NCBI GenBank assembly: GCA_903821395.1
Contig: CAIJLJ010000063.1
Span: forward strand, 1-33,944
Direction: 5' to 3'
Origin: an uncultured Solirubrobacterales bacterium
GTDB lineage: Bacteria > Actinomycetota > Thermoleophilia > Solirubrobacterales > Solirubrobacteraceae
Length of the DNA stretch: 33,944 nucleotides
This document shows, piece by piece, positions 22,674-32,216 of this stretch. Made by a program: the position numbers and the translations under genes. Under the pieces are notes generated by a model. That model did no database searches, was not told the DNA's origin, and saw only the letters and a program-made list of their open reading frames with translations. The stretch's first letter is position 1; each line of letters begins with the position of its first letter.

Positions 22674-22838
22674 ATGGCCCGTGGAGATGTACGCGTCGCG
22701 ATCACCCTCGAGTGCGAGGACTGTAAGCGACGTAATTATCAAACGAACAAAAGCAAGCGAAATACGCCTGACCGCGTAACGCTGCGCAAATACTGTCGCT
22801 GGTGCCGTAGCCACACCAGCCACAAAGAGACTCGTTAG
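22674..22838 (+). CDS. rpmG: 50S ribosomal protein L33
   Basis: A 54-residue gene, below the size most gene-finders consider safe, but unmistakable: [17 protein letters not shown] at the start and [15 protein letters not shown] at the end. The zinc-binding pairs Cys14/Cys17 and Cys41/Cys44 are both present, so this is the zinc-containing (C+) form. GGAG lies about 8 bases before the ATG. It is the first gene of the rpmG-secE-nusG set, with secE starting 13 bp after its stop. The upstream leader holds a 7-bp hairpin. L33 sits near the ribosomal E site. Confidence 0.95.
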
Positions 22839-22851
22839 TGAGCTTCGAGCA

Positions 22852-23433
22852 GTGGCACGTAACCGCAAAAGAGCGAAGCAGCGCAAGGCCAAGCGAGATG
22901 GATCGGCTGGCGGCGAAGGGATCGTCCGCGACGACATTCCAGCCTCGCTCGACCACTCCTCAGCCGACGTTGACGAGTTCGAAGCCAAGCTTGTCGCTGG
23001 AGCTGAAGGCACCCCGGCCGACCCGAAGGTCGACCCAAGTGCCGGTGGAGTCGTCCATCCTGAAGGGCTCAGCGCGGAGGAGTTCGCCGAGCTCGAGGAC
23101 CGGATCGATGATGTCGAGCAGAAGATCGAAAGCGGCGATCAGGAATCAATCAGTGAGGCTGAGGAGTCGCTCGAAGCTGACATCGAAGCTCGCCAGGCCG
23201 CTGCGGGTGTCTCTGCAGCAAGCGCCGATCAGCCTGCCAGAAGGAAGTCGATCTTTGGCCGCTTCTTCGATTTCCTTCGCGCCTCGTGGTCAGAGCTTCA
23301 GCGCGTTCAATGGCCTGATCGTCGTCAAGTCGGACAGGCCACTGCAGTCGTTATTGGCTTCGTTGTTGTCGCCGGCGCCTATCTTGGTCTCGCTGACGCA
23401 GCTGCCCAAAAAATCGTCGACCTAATCATCTGA
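22852..23433 (+). CDS. secE: Preprotein translocase subunit SecE with long acidic N-terminal extension
   Basis: 193 residues, about three times the minimal SecE. The family core is residues 138-193: amphipathic helix FFDFLRASWSELQRVQWPDRRQV, then one TM helix (ATAVVIGFVVVAGAYLGLA). Residues 1-18 are strongly basic (RNRKRAKQRKAKR). Residues 20-130 form an acidic, Ala-rich, probably disordered or helical extension, with a predicted coiled stretch at 73-115 (SAEEFAELEDRIDDVEQKIE). SecE clamps the two halves of SecY. GTG start, 13 bp after rpmG. The single C-terminal TM version is usual outside enterobacteria; the size of the extension is the unusual part. Confidence 0.93.
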   Translation: MARNRKRAKQRKAKRDGSAGGEGIVRDDIPASLDHSSADVDEFEAKLVAGAEGTPADPKVDPSAGGVVHPEGLSAEEFAELEDRIDDVEQKIESGDQESISEAEESLEADIEARQAAAGVSAASADQPARRKSIFGRFFDFLRASWSELQRVQWPDRRQVGQATAVVIGFVVVAGAYLGLADAAAQKIVDLII

Positions 23434-23455
23434 CCTTCAAACCGATCTGGATCCC

Positions 23456-23989
23456 ATGTATCGCTGGTACGTAATCAACACTCGCTCAAATCTTGAAAAG
23501 AAGGTCAAGGGCGATCTCGAACGCCGTCTCGCAGCTCACGATCAGTCGAGCAAGGTCAGGCAGATCGTCATTCCGACAGAGACCAAGGTTGAGATCAAGG
23601 ACGGCGAGAAGGTCTCGAAGGAAGAGCGCACGATGCCGGGCTACGTGTTGATCAACATGGACCTCAACATGGTCACCAACCCTGAACTTTGGGCGGTCGT
23701 CAAGGAGACGCCGAACCTGACCGGCTTCGTTGGCGCATCAACAGATCCAGTCCCGCTGACGCAGCCTGAGGTTGATCGCCTGCTCCACCAGGAGGTCGCT
23801 CAGAAGGTCGCATCGAAGGCGCAGTTCACAATCGGCGAATCGGTCAAGGTTGTTGCCGGTCCGCTCTCAGACTTCTCAGGCGAAATCGCCGAAATCAATC
23901 AGGACGCCGCGAAGCTCAAGGTGCTTGTGTCAATCTTCGGTCGAGAGACCCCGGTCGAGGTTGGCTTCGATCAGGTCAAGAAGATCTGA
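23456..23989 (+). CDS. nusG: Transcription termination/antitermination protein NusG
   Basis: 177 residues. The N-terminal NGN domain (RWYVINTRSNLEKKVKGDLERR ... MPGYVLINMDLN) contacts the RNA polymerase clamp. The KOW domain at 125-177 (GESVKVVAGPLSDFSGEIAEIN) binds Rho or ribosomal protein S10. It lacks the long acidic N-terminal extension found in many high-GC actinobacterial NusG proteins, so its length is close to the E. coli form. It lies 22 bp after secE and 39 bp before rplK, the conserved bacterial order. Confidence 0.96.
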   Translation: MYRWYVINTRSNLEKKVKGDLERRLAAHDQSSKVRQIVIPTETKVEIKDGEKVSKEERTMPGYVLINMDLNMVTNPELWAVVKETPNLTGFVGASTDPVPLTQPEVDRLLHQEVAQKVASKAQFTIGESVKVVAGPLSDFSGEIAEINQDAAKLKVLVSIFGRETPVEVGFDQVKKI

Positions 23990-24028
23990 TCTAGGTAGCC
24001 GCTAAAGATTCGCAGACAGGGATAAACG

Positions 24029-24454
24029 ATGGCCAAAAAAGTACTAACTCAACTCAAGCTCCAAGCCCCCGGCGGTCAGGCCAGTCCTGCGCCACCGGTT
24101 GGCCCTGCTCTGGGTCAGCACGGAATTAACATCATGGAGTTCTGCAAGGCCTTCAACGCCCAGACGCAGGAGAACGCCGGCGTAATCACCCCAGTGGTGA
24201 TCACTGTCTACGAGGATCGCTCATTTACCTTCATCACGAAGACGCCGCCAGCGGCCGTGCTGATCAAGCAGGCGATCAAGCTGAAGAAGGGCTCGGGCGA
24301 ACCGAACCGCGACAAGGTCGGCAAGATCACCCAAGCTCAGCTGCGTCAGATTGCTGAGACCAAGCTCGATGACCTCAGCGCAAACGATGTCGATGCCGCG
24401 ATCAAGATCATTGCCGGCACGGCTCGATCAATGGGCGTAGAGGTGGTCGCATGA
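24029..24454 (+). CDS. rplK: 50S ribosomal protein L11
   Basis: 141 residues, the normal length. The N-terminal domain has the Pro-rich [22 protein letters not shown] segment that contacts the GTPase-associated rRNA and is the thiostrepton region. The C-terminal rRNA-binding domain ends [25 protein letters not shown] serves as the ribosome binding site. The stop codon overlaps the rplA start (ATGA), so L11 and L1 are translationally coupled. Confidence 0.97.
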
Positions 24455-25179
24455 CCAAGCACAGCAAAGGCTTCGACGAAGCACTCGGAGAGGTTGACCG
24501 CGAGCGCGAGTACGAGCCGGCCGAGGCCGTAGCGCTCTGCAAGAAGCTCGCGCGAGCAAAGTTTGACGAGTCAATCGAGCTGCACCTGCGGACCGGCCTT
24601 AACGTCCGCCACGCCGAGGAGCAGCTGCGCGGCACGATCGCGCTGCCGCACGGGCTTGGCAAGGACGTCACGATCATCGTCTTCGCACAGGGCGACAAGG
24701 CCCGCGAAGCTGAAGCCGCCGGAGCCGACGTCGTCGGCGCCGAAGACCTTGCAACGAAGGTCGAAGAGGGCTTCAGCGATTTCGACGTCGCGATCTCAAC
24801 TCCCGATCTGATGCCGGTCGTCGGCAAGCTCGGGCGCGTGCTTGGGCCGTCAGGCAAGATGCCTAACCCGAAGGTCGGCACCGTGACGATGGACATCACG
24901 AAGGCCGTCGAAGAGGCCAAGGCAGGCAAGGTCGAGTACCGCACCGACCGCAGCTCGATCGTTCATCTTGTAATTGGAAAGGCAAGCTTCTCTGAGGAGG
25001 CGCTGCTCGCCAACTACGCAGCTGTCGTCGAGGAGATCATCCGCGCTAAGCCGTCGGCGGCTAAGGGCCGTTACCTGAAGTCGATCACGCTGACTTCGAC
25101 CATGGGCCCTGGCATCAAGGTTGATTCCGACCCATCTTTCACCCGCGATCTTCAGGAGGCAGCGCCGGCCGCGGCCTGA
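24451..25179 (+). CDS. rplA: 50S ribosomal protein L1
   Basis: 242 residues. Signature stretches: [24 protein letters not shown] near the start, the [10 protein letters not shown] loop, and [20 protein letters not shown]1 forms the mobile stalk at the E site and in many bacteria represses its own operon by binding a leader that mimics its rRNA site. No such mimic was identified upstream of rplK here. It overlaps rplK by 4 bp and is followed by the 74-bp rplJ leader. Confidence 0.97.
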
Positions 25180-25206
25180 CATCCTGAATATTCGCGCCAC
25201 CCAAGA

Positions 25207-25250
25207 CCTCCGGCAGGCCGTGACGACGGCCACAAGTCCGGAACAGGAGG
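25207..25250 (+). promoter_or_regulatory. rplJ (L10) leader with two exclusive folds, one hiding the Shine-Dalgarno site
   Basis: The rplA-rplJ gap holds a strong hairpin, GGCCGT (25216-25221)/ACGGCC (25226-25231). Around it, TCCGG (25209-25213) can pair with CCGGA (25238-25242), leaving the ribosome binding site GGAGG (25246-25250) free. Alternatively CCTCC (25207-25211) can pair with that GGAGG and block it. L10 with L7/L12 is known to repress its own translation by binding such a leader in many bacteria. The specific switch is inferred from complementarity only. Confidence 0.6.
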
Positions 25251-25253
25251 CTC

Positions 25254-26012
25254 ATGAACAAAGAACAGAAAATTGAAGCGGTCGCTGAGATCGCAGAGCA
25301 GATCGAGCAGTCACAGGCTGTCTTCGCGATCGACTATCGCGGCATCACCGTGTCCGAGATTGCCTCGATCCGTGCCCAGCTTGGCGCTGCCGATGCCAGC
25401 TTCCGCGTCGTCAAGAACTCGCTGACAGAGCTTGCCGCAGATAAGGCTGGCGCTGAGCATCTAAAGACGCTGCTCGAGGGTCCGACGGCGCTGACGTTTA
25501 TTCGCGGTGACGCGGCCGCGGCAGCGAAGGCGATCTCGACCTTTAACCGCGAAACTGACTTGCTGCCATTTAAGGGCGGCATCATGGATGGCGAGCCGCT
25601 CGAGGTTGAGCAGATCAAGATCATTGCCCGCCTGCCTGCCCGTGAGGTTCTTTACGGTCAGCTAGTTGGCATGGTTGCCTCGCCGGTCGGCGGACTTGTC
25701 CGCGGCCTTGGTGGGCTGATCGGTGGACTCGCGACAGCACTTGGGCAGATTCAGCTCCAGCGCGCCGACGAGCCGCAGCCTGAAGCTGAGGCAGCAGCCG
25801 AGCCGGAGGCTGAAGCAGCTCCGGAGGCTGAAGCAGCTCCAGAGGCCGAAGCCGAAGCAGCACCCGAGACTGAAGCCGAAGCCGAAGAGGCTCCAACGGC
25901 CGAAGCAGAACCAGAGGCCGAAGCAGAGCCTGAAGTAGAGGCTGAAGCAGATACCGAAGAAGCACCAGAAGAAGAAGCATCTTCCGACAACGAGGCGGAC
26001 GCTTCGGCTTAG
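25254..26012 (+). CDS. rplJ: 50S ribosomal protein L10 with ~80-residue acidic C-terminal tail
   Basis: 252 residues against about 165-175 normally. Residues 1-170 are an ordinary L10: rRNA-binding N-terminal domain (FAIDYRGITVSEIASIR, FRVVKNSL) and the C-terminal helix region that docks L7/L12 dimers (LVRGLGGLIGGLATALGQI). From about 171 the protein becomes an almost pure Glu/Ala/Pro repeat (PEAEAAPEAEAA...), ending SSDNEADASA. The tail is encoded by degenerate GAAGC(A/C)GA/GCTCC-type repeats, so slippage probably built it. The strong AGGAGG ribosome binding site may be sequestered by the leader. Whether the tail alters stalk assembly is unknown. Confidence 0.96.
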   Translation: MNKEQKIEAVAEIAEQIEQSQAVFAIDYRGITVSEIASIRAQLGAADASFRVVKNSLTELAADKAGAEHLKTLLEGPTALTFIRGDAAAAAKAISTFNRETDLLPFKGGIMDGEPLEVEQIKIIARLPAREVLYGQLVGMVASPVGGLVRGLGGLIGGLATALGQIQLQRADEPQPEAEAAAEPEAEAAPEAEAAPEAEAEAAPETEAEAEEAPTAEAEPEAEAEPEVEAEADTEEAPEEEASSDNEADASA

Positions 26013-26051
26013 GCCGAGCTCGCCGAAGCGATCCCAGGAGGGAATAAGAAC

Positions 26052-26435
26052 ATGGCAACAACGACAGAAGCATGGATTGAAGAGCTGAAGGGCATTTCGG
26101 TGCTCGAGCTCAATGAGCGCGTTAAGGCGCTCGAAGAGGAGTTCGGCGTTTCGGCGACCGCAGTGGCAGCAGCCGCTCCGGCAGCCGGTGGCGGCGGAGA
26201 CGCTGGCGGCGATGACGACGCCAGCTCAACGGTTGACGTGATTCTCACGGCAGCCGGCGACAAGAAGATCCAGGTCATCAAGGTTGTCCGCGCGGCAACC
26301 GGCCTTGGTCTGAAGGAAGCCAAGGCTGTCGTCGATGAGGCGCCAGGTCCAGTTAAGGAAGGCGTTGAGCGCGAAGAGGCAGACAAGCTCAAGGCTGAGA
26401 TCGAAGAGGCAGGCGGAACGGTTGAACTGAAGTAG
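26052..26435 (+). CDS. rplL: 50S ribosomal protein L7/L12
   Basis: 127 residues. The N-terminal dimerisation helices ([24 protein letters not shown]) are followed by an Ala/Gly/Asp hinge (about 40-58, with GGDDDASS) and the conserved C-terminal factor-binding domain ([27 protein letters not shown]). It recruits translation factors to the ribosome. CAGGAGGG lies about 9 bases before the ATG, a strong site that suits its multi-copy demand. It is followed by a terminator-like hairpin rather than directly by rpoB. Confidence 0.97.
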
Positions 26436-26457
26436 TCGCCTTGCCGTTTGAAGTGTC

Positions 26458-26483
26458 GAAGGGCGTCCTGCGGGGCGCCCTTC
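26458..26483 (+). terminator. Terminator or attenuator after rplL
   Basis: GAAGGGCG (26458-26465) pairs perfectly over 8 bp with CGCCCTTC (26476-26483) around a 10-nt loop, followed by TGCGTTT. It lies 23 bp past the rplL stop. It would separate high-level ribosomal protein expression from the downstream genes. Confidence 0.7.
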
Positions 26484-26526
26484 TGCGTTTCCGGGGCCGT
26501 CCGGCGTGCCTGTTCGACTGTTATCT

Positions 26527-27270
26527 GTGACCCACCGGTTCAACTTGGTCCGGCGCGCCGAGGCAAGCCATTCCTACGGCTTCGTGATGTTCTTCGTCGT
26601 CGGGACGATCGTGCTTGCCGTGGCGATCCCCGAGAGCAGCTCCTGGAGGGCTTCGATCGTCGTCTGCCAGGCCTTGGCAGCCGTCATCGCCTGCTGGACC
26701 TCCGATGCGCCGCAGCGCGTCTTCAGGATCGTCCTTATCTTCTCGGTGCTTGGCGTTCTCGGGGCGATCGGACTCGGTGTCTTCGGTGGCACCAATTCGC
26801 CTGCCGGTCGAGCGATGAACGTGCTGGGCGTCGTTGTCGTCGCCGCGGTGATCATCAGGGGCATCGTTCTCGACATTGAGACTGAGGGAGTCCGAGGGCG
26901 CGCGGTAGCTGGCGCGCTCACCATCTACTTGCTGTTCGGGACGCTCTGCGGTTTCGTTTACGGCCTCGAGGAGTCGATCAGCAACAACCCCGTGCTGCAT
27001 GCGTCAAATTCGACGCTGGAAGCCAACGGGTCAACCTCGGCGAACATGTACTTCTCGTTCGTAACGCTGACGACCGTCGGTTACGGCGACCTGACTCCTG
27101 TCTCCGGAGGCGCCCGCGCGACGGCAATCTTTGAGGCGCTCGTCGGCCAGCTCTATCTGGTCGGCATCGTCGCGACGCTTGGCGGGGCGCTCGGAAAAGG
27201 CAGAGGCGGGCTAAAGAACGAGCTCGCTCCGGAGGCTGCTTCGGCGCCGCCGACAAATTCCGACTCCTAG
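26527..27270 (+). CDS. Six-TM potassium-channel-like protein, copy A
   Basis: 247 residues. Hydrophobic segments at about 19-35, 42-58, 67-87, 96-115, 126-147 and 198-222, with a pore loop bearing the K+ filter TTVGYGD (182-188) between the last two. This is the Ion_trans_2 pore layout. The fourth segment lacks the regular Arg ladder of voltage sensors, so voltage gating is doubtful. The C-terminal tail (about 225-247) is short, with no RCK domain. The GTG at 26527 was chosen over GTG 26506 because it aligns without gaps with the start of copy B. It sits between rplL and rpoB, where no ion channel is expected. By hand count about 173 of 228 residues match copy B. Confidence 0.88.
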   Translation: MTHRFNLVRRAEASHSYGFVMFFVVGTIVLAVAIPESSSWRASIVVCQALAAVIACWTSDAPQRVFRIVLIFSVLGVLGAIGLGVFGGTNSPAGRAMNVLGVVVVAAVIIRGIVLDIETEGVRGRAVAGALTIYLLFGTLCGFVYGLEESISNNPVLHASNSTLEANGSTSANMYFSFVTLTTVGYGDLTPVSGGARATAIFEALVGQLYLVGIVATLGGALGKGRGGLKNELAPEAASAPPTNSDS

Positions 27271-27364
27271 TCCGTTTGGCGCTGACGCCGCGCCAATAGT
27301 CGGACTTCCGGGGCGGCGTCCGTGACCGCCGATGCGCATCGCAGGTGGGGCCTCCTTAGCCTTT

Positions 27365-27373
27365 TGCTACTTT
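27365..27373 (+). promoter_or_regulatory. Extended -10 box TGCTACTTT, copied from rpoB
   Basis: TG-C-TACTTT is an extended -10 element that matches the rpoB copy TGCTATCTT at 28405-28413. Upstream, TGGGGC (27345-27350 region) is also shared with rpoB (TGGGGT). It is the likely promoter for the leader frame and channel B. Confidence 0.55.
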
Positions 27374-27381
27374 CCGATTTC

Positions 27382-27400
27382 GCGCGTGGCAGTCATGCGC
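27382..27400 (+). promoter_or_regulatory. Leader hairpin, copied from rpoB
   Basis: GCGCGTG (27382-27388) pairs with CATGCGC (27394-27400) around GCAGT. Compared with the rpoB copy the right arm has one C-to-T change that keeps pairing as G-U, while the loop has changed freely. Confidence 0.6.
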
Positions 27401-27445
27401 AGATCAAAATTATCCCGTAAGCCTTTGCCCCCTAGGAGTCGCCGC

Positions 27446-27532
27446 TTGTCCTGCGTAGAAGTTCCACGAACGCGCACTTTTTCTGCGCACCTCGAGTACA
27501 GGCTCGGGGTTGCCAACGTGACCCACTCGTGA
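27446..27532 (+). CDS. 28-residue leader frame, truncated copy of the RpoB N-terminus, coupled to channel B
   Basis: AGGAG (27434-27438) precedes a TTG start by the same 7 bases as in rpoB. The product MSCVEVPRTR... aligns without gaps with the RpoB start [10 protein letters not shown]... (shared PRTR, A, LE, V and N at matching positions), then ends at TGA (27530-27532). That stop overlaps the GTG start of channel B (27529) as GTGA. The frame has therefore stayed open since duplication, although it can no longer make polymerase. It may act as a translated leader that delivers ribosomes to the channel start, or simply be a remnant that has not yet decayed. Confidence 0.7.
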   Translation: MSCVEVPRTRTFSAHLEYRLGVANVTHS

Positions 27533-28218
27533 GTCAGATCTCAAACCTCTGGCGGCGCGTGGGGGCAAGCCACTCCTACGGCTTCGTGATGTTCTTCGTC
27601 GTCGCCACGATCGTCTTGGCGGTAGCGATTCCTGACGACAGCAGGTGGCGCGCTTCGATCGTTATCTGCCAAGCGATCTCGGCAGTGGTCGCCTGCTGGA
27701 CCTCAGACGCTCCGAAGCGGCTCTTCCAGCTGGTGCTTACCTTCTCGACGGTATCGATCCTTGCCGCGATCGGGTTTGGCGTGTTTGGTCAAGTTGGTTC
27801 GACTGCGGGTCGGACTGTGAACGTGATCGGCGTGCTGGTCGTCGGCGCGGTGATCGTCAGGGGCATTGTGATTGACATCCAGGCCGAGGGGGTGCGGGGG
27901 CGAGCGGTCGCCGGCGCGCTGACGATCTACCTACTTTTCGGAACCCTCTGCGGGTTCATCTATCGCCTCGAGGAGTCACTCAGCTCGGATCCCGTGCTCC
28001 ACGCTGCAAACCCGTCGATCACTGACGATGGGTCCACCTCAGCAAACATGTATTTCTCGTTCGTCACGCTTACTACGGTCGGCTATGGCGACCTCACCCC
28101 GATCTCAGGTGCGGCACGCGCCACGGCAATTTTTGAGGCGCTCGTTGGCCAGCTCTACCTGGTAGGGATCGTTGCGACGCTTGGTGGGGCGCTTGGAAAA
28201 GGCAAGGGCAAGCTGTAG
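27529..28218 (+). CDS. Six-TM potassium-channel-like protein, copy B
   Basis: 229 residues, gap-free alignment with copy A over residues 1-228. The pore regions are identical: residues 121-140, 171-190 (filter TTVGYGD) and 201-220. Most changes fall in TM3 (71-90) and in the turret (151-168). It ends at GKGKGKL, about 18 residues before copy A, although DNA similarity to copy A's tail continues past the stop to the shared AATTCCGAC. The start is GTG, overlapping the stop of the rpoB-like leader frame. It has no own ribosome binding site of quality, supporting coupling. Two such subunits could form mixed tetramers. Confidence 0.88.
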   Translation: MSQISNLWRRVGASHSYGFVMFFVVATIVLAVAIPDDSRWRASIVICQAISAVVACWTSDAPKRLFQLVLTFSTVSILAAIGFGVFGQVGSTAGRTVNVIGVLVVGAVIVRGIVIDIQAEGVRGRAVAGALTIYLLFGTLCGFIYRLEESLSSDPVLHAANPSITDDGSTSANMYFSFVTLTTVGYGDLTPISGAARATAIFEALVGQLYLVGIVATLGGALGKGKGKL

Positions 28219-28256
28219 AAAAAAAGTTGGCGCTGGAGCCTGCTGTTGCGCCACTG

Positions 28257-28285
28257 TCGAATTCCGACGGGTGATCCGTTAGACT
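28257..28285 (+). promoter_or_regulatory. Candidate upstream rpoB promoter (TCGAAT-17-TAGACT)
   Basis: TCGAAT (28257-28262) and TAGACT (28280-28285) are separated by 17 bp, the standard spacing for the main sigma factor. The left duplication copy lacks the TAGACT box. It would give rpoB a ~190-nt leader. Confidence 0.5.
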
Positions 28286-28404
28286 GCCGAAATCGGTCAA
28301 TAGTCGTAGCCGCCTAAGTGCGGACGCCGCGCCACATACGCGGTCGTCCAGGGCGGGGTCCGTGAGTGCCGATGCGCCCCGTAGGTGGGGTCTGCGTAGC
28401 CTTG

Positions 28405-28413
28405 TGCTATCTT
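28405..28413 (+). promoter_or_regulatory. Extended -10 box TGCTATCTT of rpoB
   Basis: TG-C-TATCTT, conserved in the duplicated copy (TGCTACTTT). Transcription from here would begin near 28420, placing the hairpin at 28422-28440 at the very 5' end of the mRNA and leaving a ~65-nt leader. Confidence 0.55.
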
Positions 28414-28421
28414 CAGAAGTC

Positions 28422-28440
28422 GCGCGTGAAAGTCACGCGC
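28422..28440 (+). promoter_or_regulatory. rpoB leader hairpin
   Basis: Perfect 7-bp stem GCGCGTG (28422-28428)/CACGCGC (28434-28440) with loop AAAGT. Its pairing is kept in the duplicate at 27382-27400. It could protect the 5' end or serve regulation. Confidence 0.6.
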
Positions 28441-28484
28441 ACCTCGTAGTTGCCCGTAAGCCTCTGAAACTCAGGAGTCGCCGC

Positions 28485-31400
28485 TTGTCCCGTGTAGACG
28501 CTCCACGCACGCGCCGTACCTTCGCGCGCCTCGAAAGCACCATCGATGTTCCCAACCTGATCGACATCCAACGCCGCTCATTTGAGCGCCTTGTCGATCC
28601 CGTCAAGGGGGGACTGCGCGAAACAATCGACGACGTCTCGCCGATTGAGGATTACACCGGAAACCTCGCAATTCAATTCGGCGAACTGGCCTTCGAAGAG
28701 CCTGTCGCCACGATCGAAGAGTGCCGCGAGAAGGACATCACTTACGCGCGCCCACTCTCAATCACCGTCGCCTTCATTAACCGCGAGACCGGTGAGATCC
28801 GTGAGCAGCAGGTCTTCATGGGTGACTTCCCATGGATGACCGACCGCGGCACCTTCATCATCAACGGCACCGAGCGTGTCGTTGTGACCCAGCTGGTCCG
28901 CTCGCCGGGCGCTTACGTGATGGAGCCGAAGGACAAGGAGAAGCAGGTCTTCACCGCCAACTTGATGCCGGCCCGCGGCTCATGGCTCGAGCTGGAGATT
29001 GACAAGAAGGGCAAAGTCTTCGTACGCATCGACCGCAAGCGCAAGCTTCCGGTAACGGTGCTTCTGCGCGCACTCGGCTTCACCGATGACGAGCTGCTCG
29101 AGGTTTTTGAGGACTCGCGTTACATCCGCAACACAATTACTGCCGACCCTCCTCACGCGGAGCCGCGCGCGGAAGACTTCTTCAAGCGCGTTGAGGCGCT
29201 ATCGAAGAAGCTCAAGGGCGCGACGCACAAGAACGACGCTGCGCTCGACAAAGAGGCAGTCGCCGAACTCCTCGCTTGGGTCACCGATGACAAGCGTAAG
29301 TGGAAGGAAGCCCAAGATGACGAGGTCACTGAGCTCACGCAGCTCTTGACCGAGGAGCTCGAGCGCTTCGAGATGAACCGCAGCGCAGGGCTGATTGAAC
29401 TTTTCAAGAAGCAGCGTCCGGGCGAGCCGCCGAGCGTTGAAGCAGCCGAGTCGCTGCTCAACCAGATGTTCTTTGACCCCAAGCGCTACGACCTAACTCG
29501 CGTTGGTCGCTACAAGCTGAACGCGCGCCTTGGGACCGGTGTTGATCTCGAGACTCGCACGCTCACGGTTGAAGACATCGTTGCTTTGATCAAGGAACTC
29601 GTGCTGCTGCCGAAGTTGCTTGGGATTCCAGAGGACGACGAGGTCGAGATCAAGGACTTTGCCGCTGAGGCGCAGTCATTGCCGCGTGAGCCGCTGGTAG
29701 ATCATCTCGATGAGTACGAGCATTTTGGAAACCGTCGTCTGCGAACAGTCGGCGAGTTGATTCAAGACGCTTTCCGCGTCGGTCTCTACCGCATGGAGCG
29801 CGTAGTTCGAGAGCGCCTAACGACTGAGGATGAGGACACGATCACGCCGCAGACGATCGTCAACATCCGCCCAGTTGTGGCGGCGCTGAAGGAGTTCTTT
29901 GGCTCCTCGCAGCTGAGCCAGTTCATGGATCAGACGAACTCGCTCTCTGGCCTCACGCATCGCCGCCGCCTGTCGGCGCTTGGTGCCGGCGGCCTGACCC
30001 GCGAGCGCGCACCGATCGAGGTTCGCGACGTACACCCGACCCACTACGGCCGGATGTGCCCGATTGAAACGCCTGAGGGCCCGAACGTCGGCCTAATCGG
30101 TTCGCTTTCGAGCTACGCCAAGATCTCTGACTTTGGCTTCATCACGACTCCTTATCGCGTCGTCAAGGACGGCGTCGTTACCAACGAGGTTGTCGATCTC
30201 GATGCCACGCAGGAAGAGGAGATGCTGGTCGCCCAGGCCAACCATCCAATCGATGAGAAGACCGGCAAGCTGCGCGGCCCTGAAGTTATCTGTCGTACGC
30301 ACGCCGGTCAGTACGTGACCGTTGCGCCGAAGGACGTTGACCTCGTTGACGTCTCGCCTCAGCAGATCTGGTCGGTTGCGACGGCGATGATTCCTTTCCT
30401 CGAGCACGACGACGCCAACCGCGCTCTGATGGGCTCCAACATGCAGCGCCAGGCAGTCCCGCTGCTGGTTGCAGACGCACCGCTCGTAGGTACCGGGATG
30501 GAAGCGCGAGCAGCGCTCGATACCGGCGACGTCCTGCTTGCCGGCATCGACGGCACCGTCACCTTCGTCGACGCTGAACGAATCGTGATTGAGGGCAAGG
30601 AACGCGAAGAGCATCTGCTCAGCAAGTTCCAGCGCTCAAACCAAGGAACGTTGATCCATCAGCGGCCACGCGTGAAGAATGGCGAGAAGGTCAAGGCTGG
30701 CCAGGCGCTTGCCGACGGCGCATCGACCGATCACGGTGAGATGGCTCTTGGTAAGAACCTGATGGTCGCCTTCATGGCTTGGGAGGGCTACAACTTTGAG
30801 GACGCGATCATCCTCAGCAGCCGCCTCGTCAAGGACGACGAGCTGACTTCGATTCATATCGAGGAGTACGAGGTTGATGCCCGCTCAACGAAGCTCGGCG
30901 ACGAGGAGATCACGCGTGACATTCCGAACCGTTCGGAAGAGTCGCTGCGTAACCTCGACGACCGCGGCATCGTCCGCGTTGGTGCCGAGGTCCTTTCCGG
31001 CGACCTGCTTGTAGGAAAGGTGACGCCGAAGGGCGAGACCGAGCTGACGGCGGAGGAGAAGCTGATCCGCGCGATCTTCAAGGAGAAGGCACGCGAGGTT
31101 CGCGACACGTCGCTGAAGGTGCCGCACGGTGAGGGTGGCGTCGTAATTGACGTCCAAACATTCTCGCGCGAGGACGAAGACGAGCTGCAGGCAGGCGTTA
31201 ACGACCTGATTCGCGTCTTCGTTGCCAAGAAGCGCAAAATCTCAGAGGGCGACAAGCTTGCTGGCCGTCACGGCAACAAGGGTGTTATCTCGAAGATCGT
31301 CGACGAGCAGGACATGCCTTTCCTTGAGGACGGCACACCTGTTGACGTCATTCTCAACCCGCTCGGCGTACCGAGCCGAATGAACGTCGGTCAGATCCTT

Positions 31401-32216
31401 GAAACGCACCTCGGCTGGGCCGCGGCGCAAGGCTGGTACGACGACGGCACTCAAGCTTTCAAAGAGTCGCGTGACGACGACAATCGCGTCTACGTATCAA
31501 CGCCAGTCTTCGACGGCGCAACAGTTGAGGACGTTGACACGGCGCTCGTCAAGTGGCAGGACGAGCACAAGGGCCGGATCCAGATGGACATCGACAAGTC
31601 GAAGCCGGTTGGAACCCAGGCTTCGGGCAAGTTCACGCTATTCAATGGTCGCACCGGCGAGCCGTTCGAGCAGCAGGTGACGGTCGGTTACATGTACATC
31701 CTCAAGCTGCTGCACCTTGTTGACGACAAGATCCACGCTCGTTCAACCGGTCCGTACTCGCTTGTTACCCAGCAGCCGCTTGGTGGTAAGGCGCAGTTCG
31801 GTGGCCAGCGCTTCGGCGAGATGGAGGTTTGGGCGCTCGAGGCTTACGGCGCCGCCTACACGCTGCAGGAGATGCTGACCGTCAAGTCCGACGACACCGT
31901 TGGTCGCGTTAAGGCTTATGAAGCGATCGTTAAGGGAGAGAACATCCCTGAGCCTTCGATTCCTGAATCTTTCAAGGTGCTGCTGAAGGAGATGCAGTCA
32001 CTCGGGCTCGACGTCAACGTCGTATCCGATTCGGGCGAACGCGCCGAGATTCCAAGCGAGGAAGATGATCTGCTGCGCGCAGCAGAAGAGCTTGGCATTG
32101 ACCTTTCAGGCGCCCGCGCCGGCGTCGCAGTCGAAGGTGAAGAAGGCGAACTTAAGGAAGAGGGTGGCGACGAAGAGGTTGCCGCCGAAGAGACCGAGGC
32201 AGAGGAACCAGCATGA
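28485..32216 (+). CDS. rpoB: DNA-directed RNA polymerase subunit beta
   Basis: 1243 residues from the TTG at 28485. This start was chosen because AGGAG lies 7 bases upstream and both features are conserved in the duplicated copy; the frame is open to a GTG at 28362, but that part is leader. Hallmarks: [13 protein letters not shown], the rifampicin region (29903-29998), [28 protein letters not shown] and [20 protein letters not shown]. Residues ~224-300 hold a charged helical insertion not present in the mycobacterial or E. coli beta at this point, as far as I recall them. The C-terminus ends in an acidic tail ([18 protein letters not shown]...). The stop overlaps the rpoC ATG (ATGA). Confidence 0.97.

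What the first reader, a model, noticed from the sequence alone, without database searches (positions are those of the whole stretch)
26527..28218. Two paralogous K+ channel genes inserted between rplL and rpoB
Seen: both have the TTVGYGD filter and six hydrophobic segments, are about 76% identical by hand count, and occupy the rplL-rpoB interval. Established: rplJL-rpoBC is among the most conserved bacterial gene orders and this gap rarely holds other genes. Inference: channel output may be tied to growth or transcription capacity, for example K+ homeostasis scaled with ribosome/RNAP synthesis.
Basis: partly seen in the sequence, partly recalled or inferred. Interest (0 to 1): 0.78.

Follow-up and report, generated by a model that had tools for sequence, protein, structure and literature searches.

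The report
K+ channels inserted upstream of rpoB
Two sister potassium-channel genes really do sit between the ribosomal gene rplL and the RNA-polymerase gene rpoB, but in this bacterial class that spot is a common landing place for unrelated genes, bounded by a terminator-like hairpin on one side and by rpoB's own conserved promoter-like elements and structured leader RNA on the other, so shared control of channel and polymerase is not indicated.

Summary
Observation confirmed. Two 6-TM K+ channel genes (A 26527-27270, B 27529-28218; 76.9% identical over 212 aa) lie between rplL and rpoB. This is not a one-assembly oddity: a single orthologue sits in the same place in 11 other genomes of the genus; one (G016) has a ROK regulator instead. 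Only the window genome has two. B arose by an old tandem duplication that also copied rpoB's 5' region: a decayed rpoB leader and a 28-codon rpoB stub lie between A and B, and the stub's stop overlaps B's start (GTGA). A-B dS is 0.91, dN/dS 0.18, so both look maintained. rplL is followed by a terminator-like hairpin, and rpoB has its own two -10-like elements flanking a covarying leader RNA, present before rpoB in 36/36 genomes of two families and absent from Rfam. The channel is best read as an independently transcribed passenger in an insulated insertion zone; growth-coupling is not supported, save a weak possibility for B. The leader RNA is the more novel by-product.

The parts
26052..26435 (+). 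rplL, upstream flank
   Evidence: PF00542 and PF16320
26458..26483 (+). terminator-like hairpin after rplL (GAAGGGCGTCCTGCGGGGCGCCCTTC; weak T tract)
   Evidence: inverted repeat; conserved in the genus with a compensatory A-T to C-G change in L012/L015; strong hairpins at the like place in nearly all class genomes examined
26499..26519 (+). conserved box GTCCG-N10-TCGACT, 7 nt before the channel A start; promoter-like (inference)
   Evidence: aligned in 11 genus members
26527..27270 (+). K+ channel A, 247 aa, 6 TM, TTVGYGD
27271..27445 (+). decayed copy of the rpoB leader: 35 nt with P1 -10 and the invariant 5' block lost; P2-like TACTTT kept at 27368-27373
   Evidence: 20.5 bits with model R1 against 94.6 for the real leader; pairwise alignment; box scan
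27446..27532 (+). rpoB stub: AGGAG, TTG start, 28 codons, TGA overlapping the GTG of channel B
27529..28218 (+). K+ channel B, 229 aa, C-terminal tail lost through an in-frame TAG
28280..28285 (+). P1 -10-like element TAGACT of rpoB
   Evidence: TANNNT at the like place in 30 of 31 leaders; the other is cut by a contig end
28286..28377 (+). structured rpoB leader RNA
   Evidence: covariation; model hit of 94.6 bits; distribution
28403..28413 (+). P2 -10-like element TGTGCTATCTT of rpoB
   Evidence: TANNNT in 31 of 31 leaders, 28 with TGTGC before it
28485..32216 (+). rpoB from its likely TTG start
   Evidence: TIGR02013, 1611 bits; SD and start conserved

Best explanation
A non-voltage-gated 6-TM K+ channel gene settled, near the base of this Solirubrobacteraceae genus, in an insulated insertion zone between a terminator-like hairpin that ends the rplJL unit and the promoter/leader region of rpoBC. 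It most likely runs as its own unit from a promoter next to its start codon. Shown: position, genus-wide occurrence, hairpin, conserved boxes, leader RNA. Inferred: all transcription boundaries. In the window lineage a tandem duplication of [channel + rpoB leader + first ~20 rpoB codons] made a second channel, B. The copied leader then decayed (P1 -10 lost), while a short rpoB stub remains whose stop overlaps B's start, so B is probably translated by coupling, on read-through from A and/or from a weak relic P2. Physiologically the proteins should form tetrameric K+-selective pores that set membrane potential or K+ leak (family knowledge, not tested); no regulatory domain is visible.
For: Pfam, filter and TM segments; orthologues in the same place in 11 other genomes; gap channels form one clade, support 91/97; variable gaps across the class with no channel in 40 outside gaps; rplL hairpins; start-proximal box; rpoB -10-like elements and leader; duplication, relic leader and GTGA overlap; dN/dS 0.18 at dS 0.91.
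Against: The rplL hairpin has a poor T tract, so termination may be partial; the channel box lacks the A expected at position 2 of a -10; no RNA data. The duplication is known from one metagenome-assembled contig. The codon tree does not settle whether A or B is older or whether relatives lost a copy.
Confidence: 0.75

Rival explanations
1. One reading: the channels are co-transcribed with the ribosomal/RNAP genes, so that K+ conductance scales with growth.
For: Same strand and position kept in 12 genomes of the genus; TrkH is absent from most of the genus, so K+ handling there is unusual; partial read-through of the rplL hairpin is possible.
Against: Hairpin after rplL, own start-proximal box, rpoB promoter-like elements downstream of the channel; other genera carry unrelated genes in the same place; G016 of the genus has a ROK regulator there.
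Confidence: 0.12
2. Only B is wired to rpoB control: the duplication placed it behind a working copy of rpoB's P2 and translation start (promoter capture).
For: Relic keeps a TACTTT box at the P2 place, AGGAG, TTG and an open 28-codon stub overlapping B's start.
Against: P1 and the invariant block of the leader are lost; TGTGC is degraded to TTTGC; single genome.
Confidence: 0.15
3. B is a decaying pseudogene, or the pair is an assembly artefact.
For: B lost its C-terminal tail through an in-frame TAG, has no own start-proximal box and a longer branch in the codon tree; one MAG contig.
Against: Open frame, intact filter and six TM segments after dS about 0.9 with dN/dS about 0.18. The copies are 72% identical with a longest exact match of 31 bases, and the relic has private deletions, unlike a chimera of two strains.
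Confidence: 0.08

Closest known systems
Prokaryotic 6-TM K+ channels of Pfam Ion_trans_2 (SthK-type in the PDB; eukaryotic K2P pores score best by sequence)
   Same: TTVGYGD filter, pore helix and six TM segments
   Different: No cyclic-nucleotide or RCK domain; fourth segment with a single Arg, so no voltage sensor by sequence; the PDB matches cover mainly the pore
Two-promoter rpoB-rpoC control region of mycobacteria (PMC6181997)
   Same: Two promoters before rpoB with a conserved stretch between them; Promoter II motif CGCTATNGTT resembles TGTGCTATCTT here
   Different: Here the stretch between the two elements is a covarying structured RNA confined to two families; promoters here are inferred, not measured
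Lacto-rpoB candidate RNA (RF01709, PMC2864571)
   Same: A candidate structured RNA named for rpoB
   Different: Reported in Lactobacillales; no Rfam family matched this leader up to E=1

Membership tests
Ion_trans_2 K+ channel | Pfam PF07885 over its gathering score | tested here: met
   50.1 and 49.5 bits against 22.5
Ion_trans_2 K+ channel | T-V-G-Y-G selectivity filter between two TM helices | tested here: met
   TTVGYGD at residue 182 in both
Ion_trans_2 K+ channel | K+-selective conductance | not testable with these tools
   needs electrophysiology
Voltage-gated (Kv-type) channel | Arg/Lys every third residue in S4 | tested here: not met
   fourth segment VIGVLVVGAVIVRGIVIDI has one Arg; PF00520 below its cut-off; NCBIfam voltage-gated models far below theirs
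Cyclic-nucleotide- or RCK-gated channel | C-terminal CNBD or TrkA_N domain | tested here: not met
   no such Pfam domain in either protein; only a short tail after the last TM segment
Part of the rplJL-rpoBC transcription unit | co-transcription with its neighbours | not testable with these tools
   sequence signals point against it
Lacto-rpoB RNA (for the leader) | match to the Rfam model | tested here: not met
   no Lacto-rpoB match up to E=1 over 22800-29500

The most novel reading that the evidence does not exclude
rpoBC in Solirubrobacteraceae and a sister family is controlled by an undescribed structured leader RNA lying between two rpoB promoters; in the window lineage a partial copy of this control region was captured upstream of a second K+ channel gene, giving it an rpoB-type translation start and possibly P2-driven expression.
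Probability: 0.3. Interest if true: 0.62.

Novelty: new member of a known kind. Interest (0 to 1): 0.42.

Why it matters
It shows that the rplL-rpoB junction, usually cited as near-invariant, is an insulated insertion zone in this class, and suggests why (terminator-like hairpin on one side, promoter-like elements plus leader RNA on the other), so gene neighbourhood there should not be read as shared function. It also gives a clear case of a tandem duplication copying an essential gene's control region to a passenger gene, and a candidate cis-regulatory RNA for RNA polymerase synthesis that can be tested directly.

Tried and rejected
An upstream ORF in the leader (GTG 28362; 32 aa and intact in the relic, similar in several relatives) was considered as a leader peptide and set aside: its GTG is part of the invariant RNA block and its length is not kept outside the closest relatives. 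A TVGFGD motif in one outside gap lay in a subtilase-like protein. The simple sigma-70/terminator scan found nothing useful. TrkH is missing in 15 of 17 genus genomes while TrkA_N proteins are present in all; no link to the channels was shown. Literature searches gave no report of a channel in this gap nor of this leader. The age of the A/B split could not be settled by tree.

Full report
The two ORFs are at the stated coordinates, both match PF07885 well over its cut-off, both have six hydrophobic segments and TTVGYGD at residue 182, and they are 76.9% identical over 212 residues. They are the only PF07885 matches in the genome. rplJ and rplL lie upstream and rpoB downstream. The fourth segment carries a single Arg and no ligand-binding domain is found, so by sequence they are plain, non-voltage-gated channels.

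It is not an oddity of one assembly. Of 17 genomes held for the genus, 12 (the window's included) have the channel next to rplL and/or rpoB, ten of them with both flanks on one contig. The other eleven have one copy. One genome, G016, has a ROK-family regulator upstream of rpoB instead; the remaining four are uninformative or lack the region. The named records behind eight of them are metagenome assemblies labelled Solirubrobacteraceae, Solirubrobacterales or Actinomycetota; two carry the name Bifidobacterium breve, which cannot be right. That they come from lakes and reservoirs is inferred from isolate names. Similar channels, about 30-38% identical, are common in the family but were not found beside rplL or rpoB. 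The gap channels form one clade, support 91/97, which fits one insertion near the base of the genus.

The premise that this interval rarely holds other genes fails in this class. Comparing rplL and rpoB positions in 108 genomes, the distance exceeds 700 bp in 69 and reaches over 20 kb. The contents vary: ORFs that look like glyoxalase-type, methyltransferase-like, PAP2-like and uncharacterised proteins (read by eye, not tested). No K+ filter was found in 40 fetched gaps outside the genus, apart from one chance motif in a subtilase-like protein.

Why the interval tolerates insertions can be read from its edges. After rplL there is a strong hairpin in nearly every class genome examined, of different sequence but similar place; within the genus it is conserved with a compensatory change. 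Its T tract is poor, so it is called terminator-like only. Before rpoB there are two TANNNT elements. The first is present in 30 of 31 leaders (the other is cut by a contig end) and the second in all 31, in 28 of them with TGTGC before it. Between them lies an RNA of about 90 nt with invariant blocks (CNATAGNCGNAGC, GGGGTCCGTGA) and covarying helices: 9 of 18 pairs show two-sided changes, 91.9% of cells pair, and none of 500 shuffles reaches the covariation score; slid controls give 34-49% paired. A covariance model finds it in 36 of 36 genomes of two families, always upstream of rpoB and once per genome (G133, with a second copy of the region, has two), in no other genome of the class draw, and nowhere else in 296 genomes drawn from the phylum. 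One weak match (25 bits) lies before rpoB in a genome of another family of the order (L133). Rfam has no match. Precedents of the kind are the Lacto-rpoB motif (PMC2864571) and the mycobacterial two-promoter rpoBC region with a conserved inter-promoter stretch (PMC6181997).

In the genus the channel has a conserved box, GTCCG-N10-TNGANT, 6-7 nt before its start codon (in L004 if the in-frame upstream GTG is used), even where the proteins are only 33-42% identical. This fits a leaderless promoter but lacks the usual second-position A, so it is inference.

The second channel has a clear origin. Window 26551-27521 and 27553-28560 are 72% identical: the unit [channel + rpoB leader + rpoB 5' end] was duplicated in tandem. 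Between A and B the copied leader has lost 35 nt covering the P1 -10 and the invariant 5' block and scores only 20.5 bits; a P2-like box remains. The rpoB stub keeps AGGAG and TTG, runs 28 codons, and its TGA overlaps B's GTG, a standard arrangement for translational coupling (inference). B has lost the C-terminal tail through an in-frame TAG. A-B dS is 0.91 and dN/dS 0.18: old, and both constrained. An assembly chimera would hardly give a decayed leader with private deletions.

Conclusion: ordinary K+ channels in a place that is unusual for bacteria at large but permissive in this class. The growth-coupling idea is not supported by the anatomy, except that B may have borrowed part of rpoB's expression signals. 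The rpoB leader RNA is the more novel thing in the neighbourhood. All statements on transcription and channel function are inference from sequence.

Noticed in passing
window 28280-28490: Structured, covarying rpoB leader RNA between two conserved -10-like elements, in 36/36 genomes of two families, not in Rfam.
   Followed up: yes
window 28362-28485: A 1-nt deletion fuses an upstream leader frame with rpoB, so automatic calling would give rpoB a false 41-residue N-terminal extension.
   Followed up: yes
L095-L134 (rplL-rpoB gaps of other genera): The gap is a permissive insertion zone across the class; strong hairpins follow rplL almost everywhere.
   Followed up: partly
L100:754-1140: Gap ORF whose C-terminal half resembles the L7/L12 C-terminal domain by eye, right after rplL; not tested.
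   Followed up: no
L071, L076 (CAMCVN010000015.1, CAMDBT010000008.1): Public records titled Bifidobacterium breve that carry this Solirubrobacteraceae locus; the organism name looks wrong.
   Followed up: no
G000 and its genus: TrkH is absent from 15 of 17 genomes while a TrkA_N pair in tandem is common; the K+ uptake system is unclear.
   Followed up: no
G133 C8 and C11: Two copies of the rpoB leader, three rplL and six rpoB matches, suggesting a duplicated region or an assembly duplicate.
   Followed up: no
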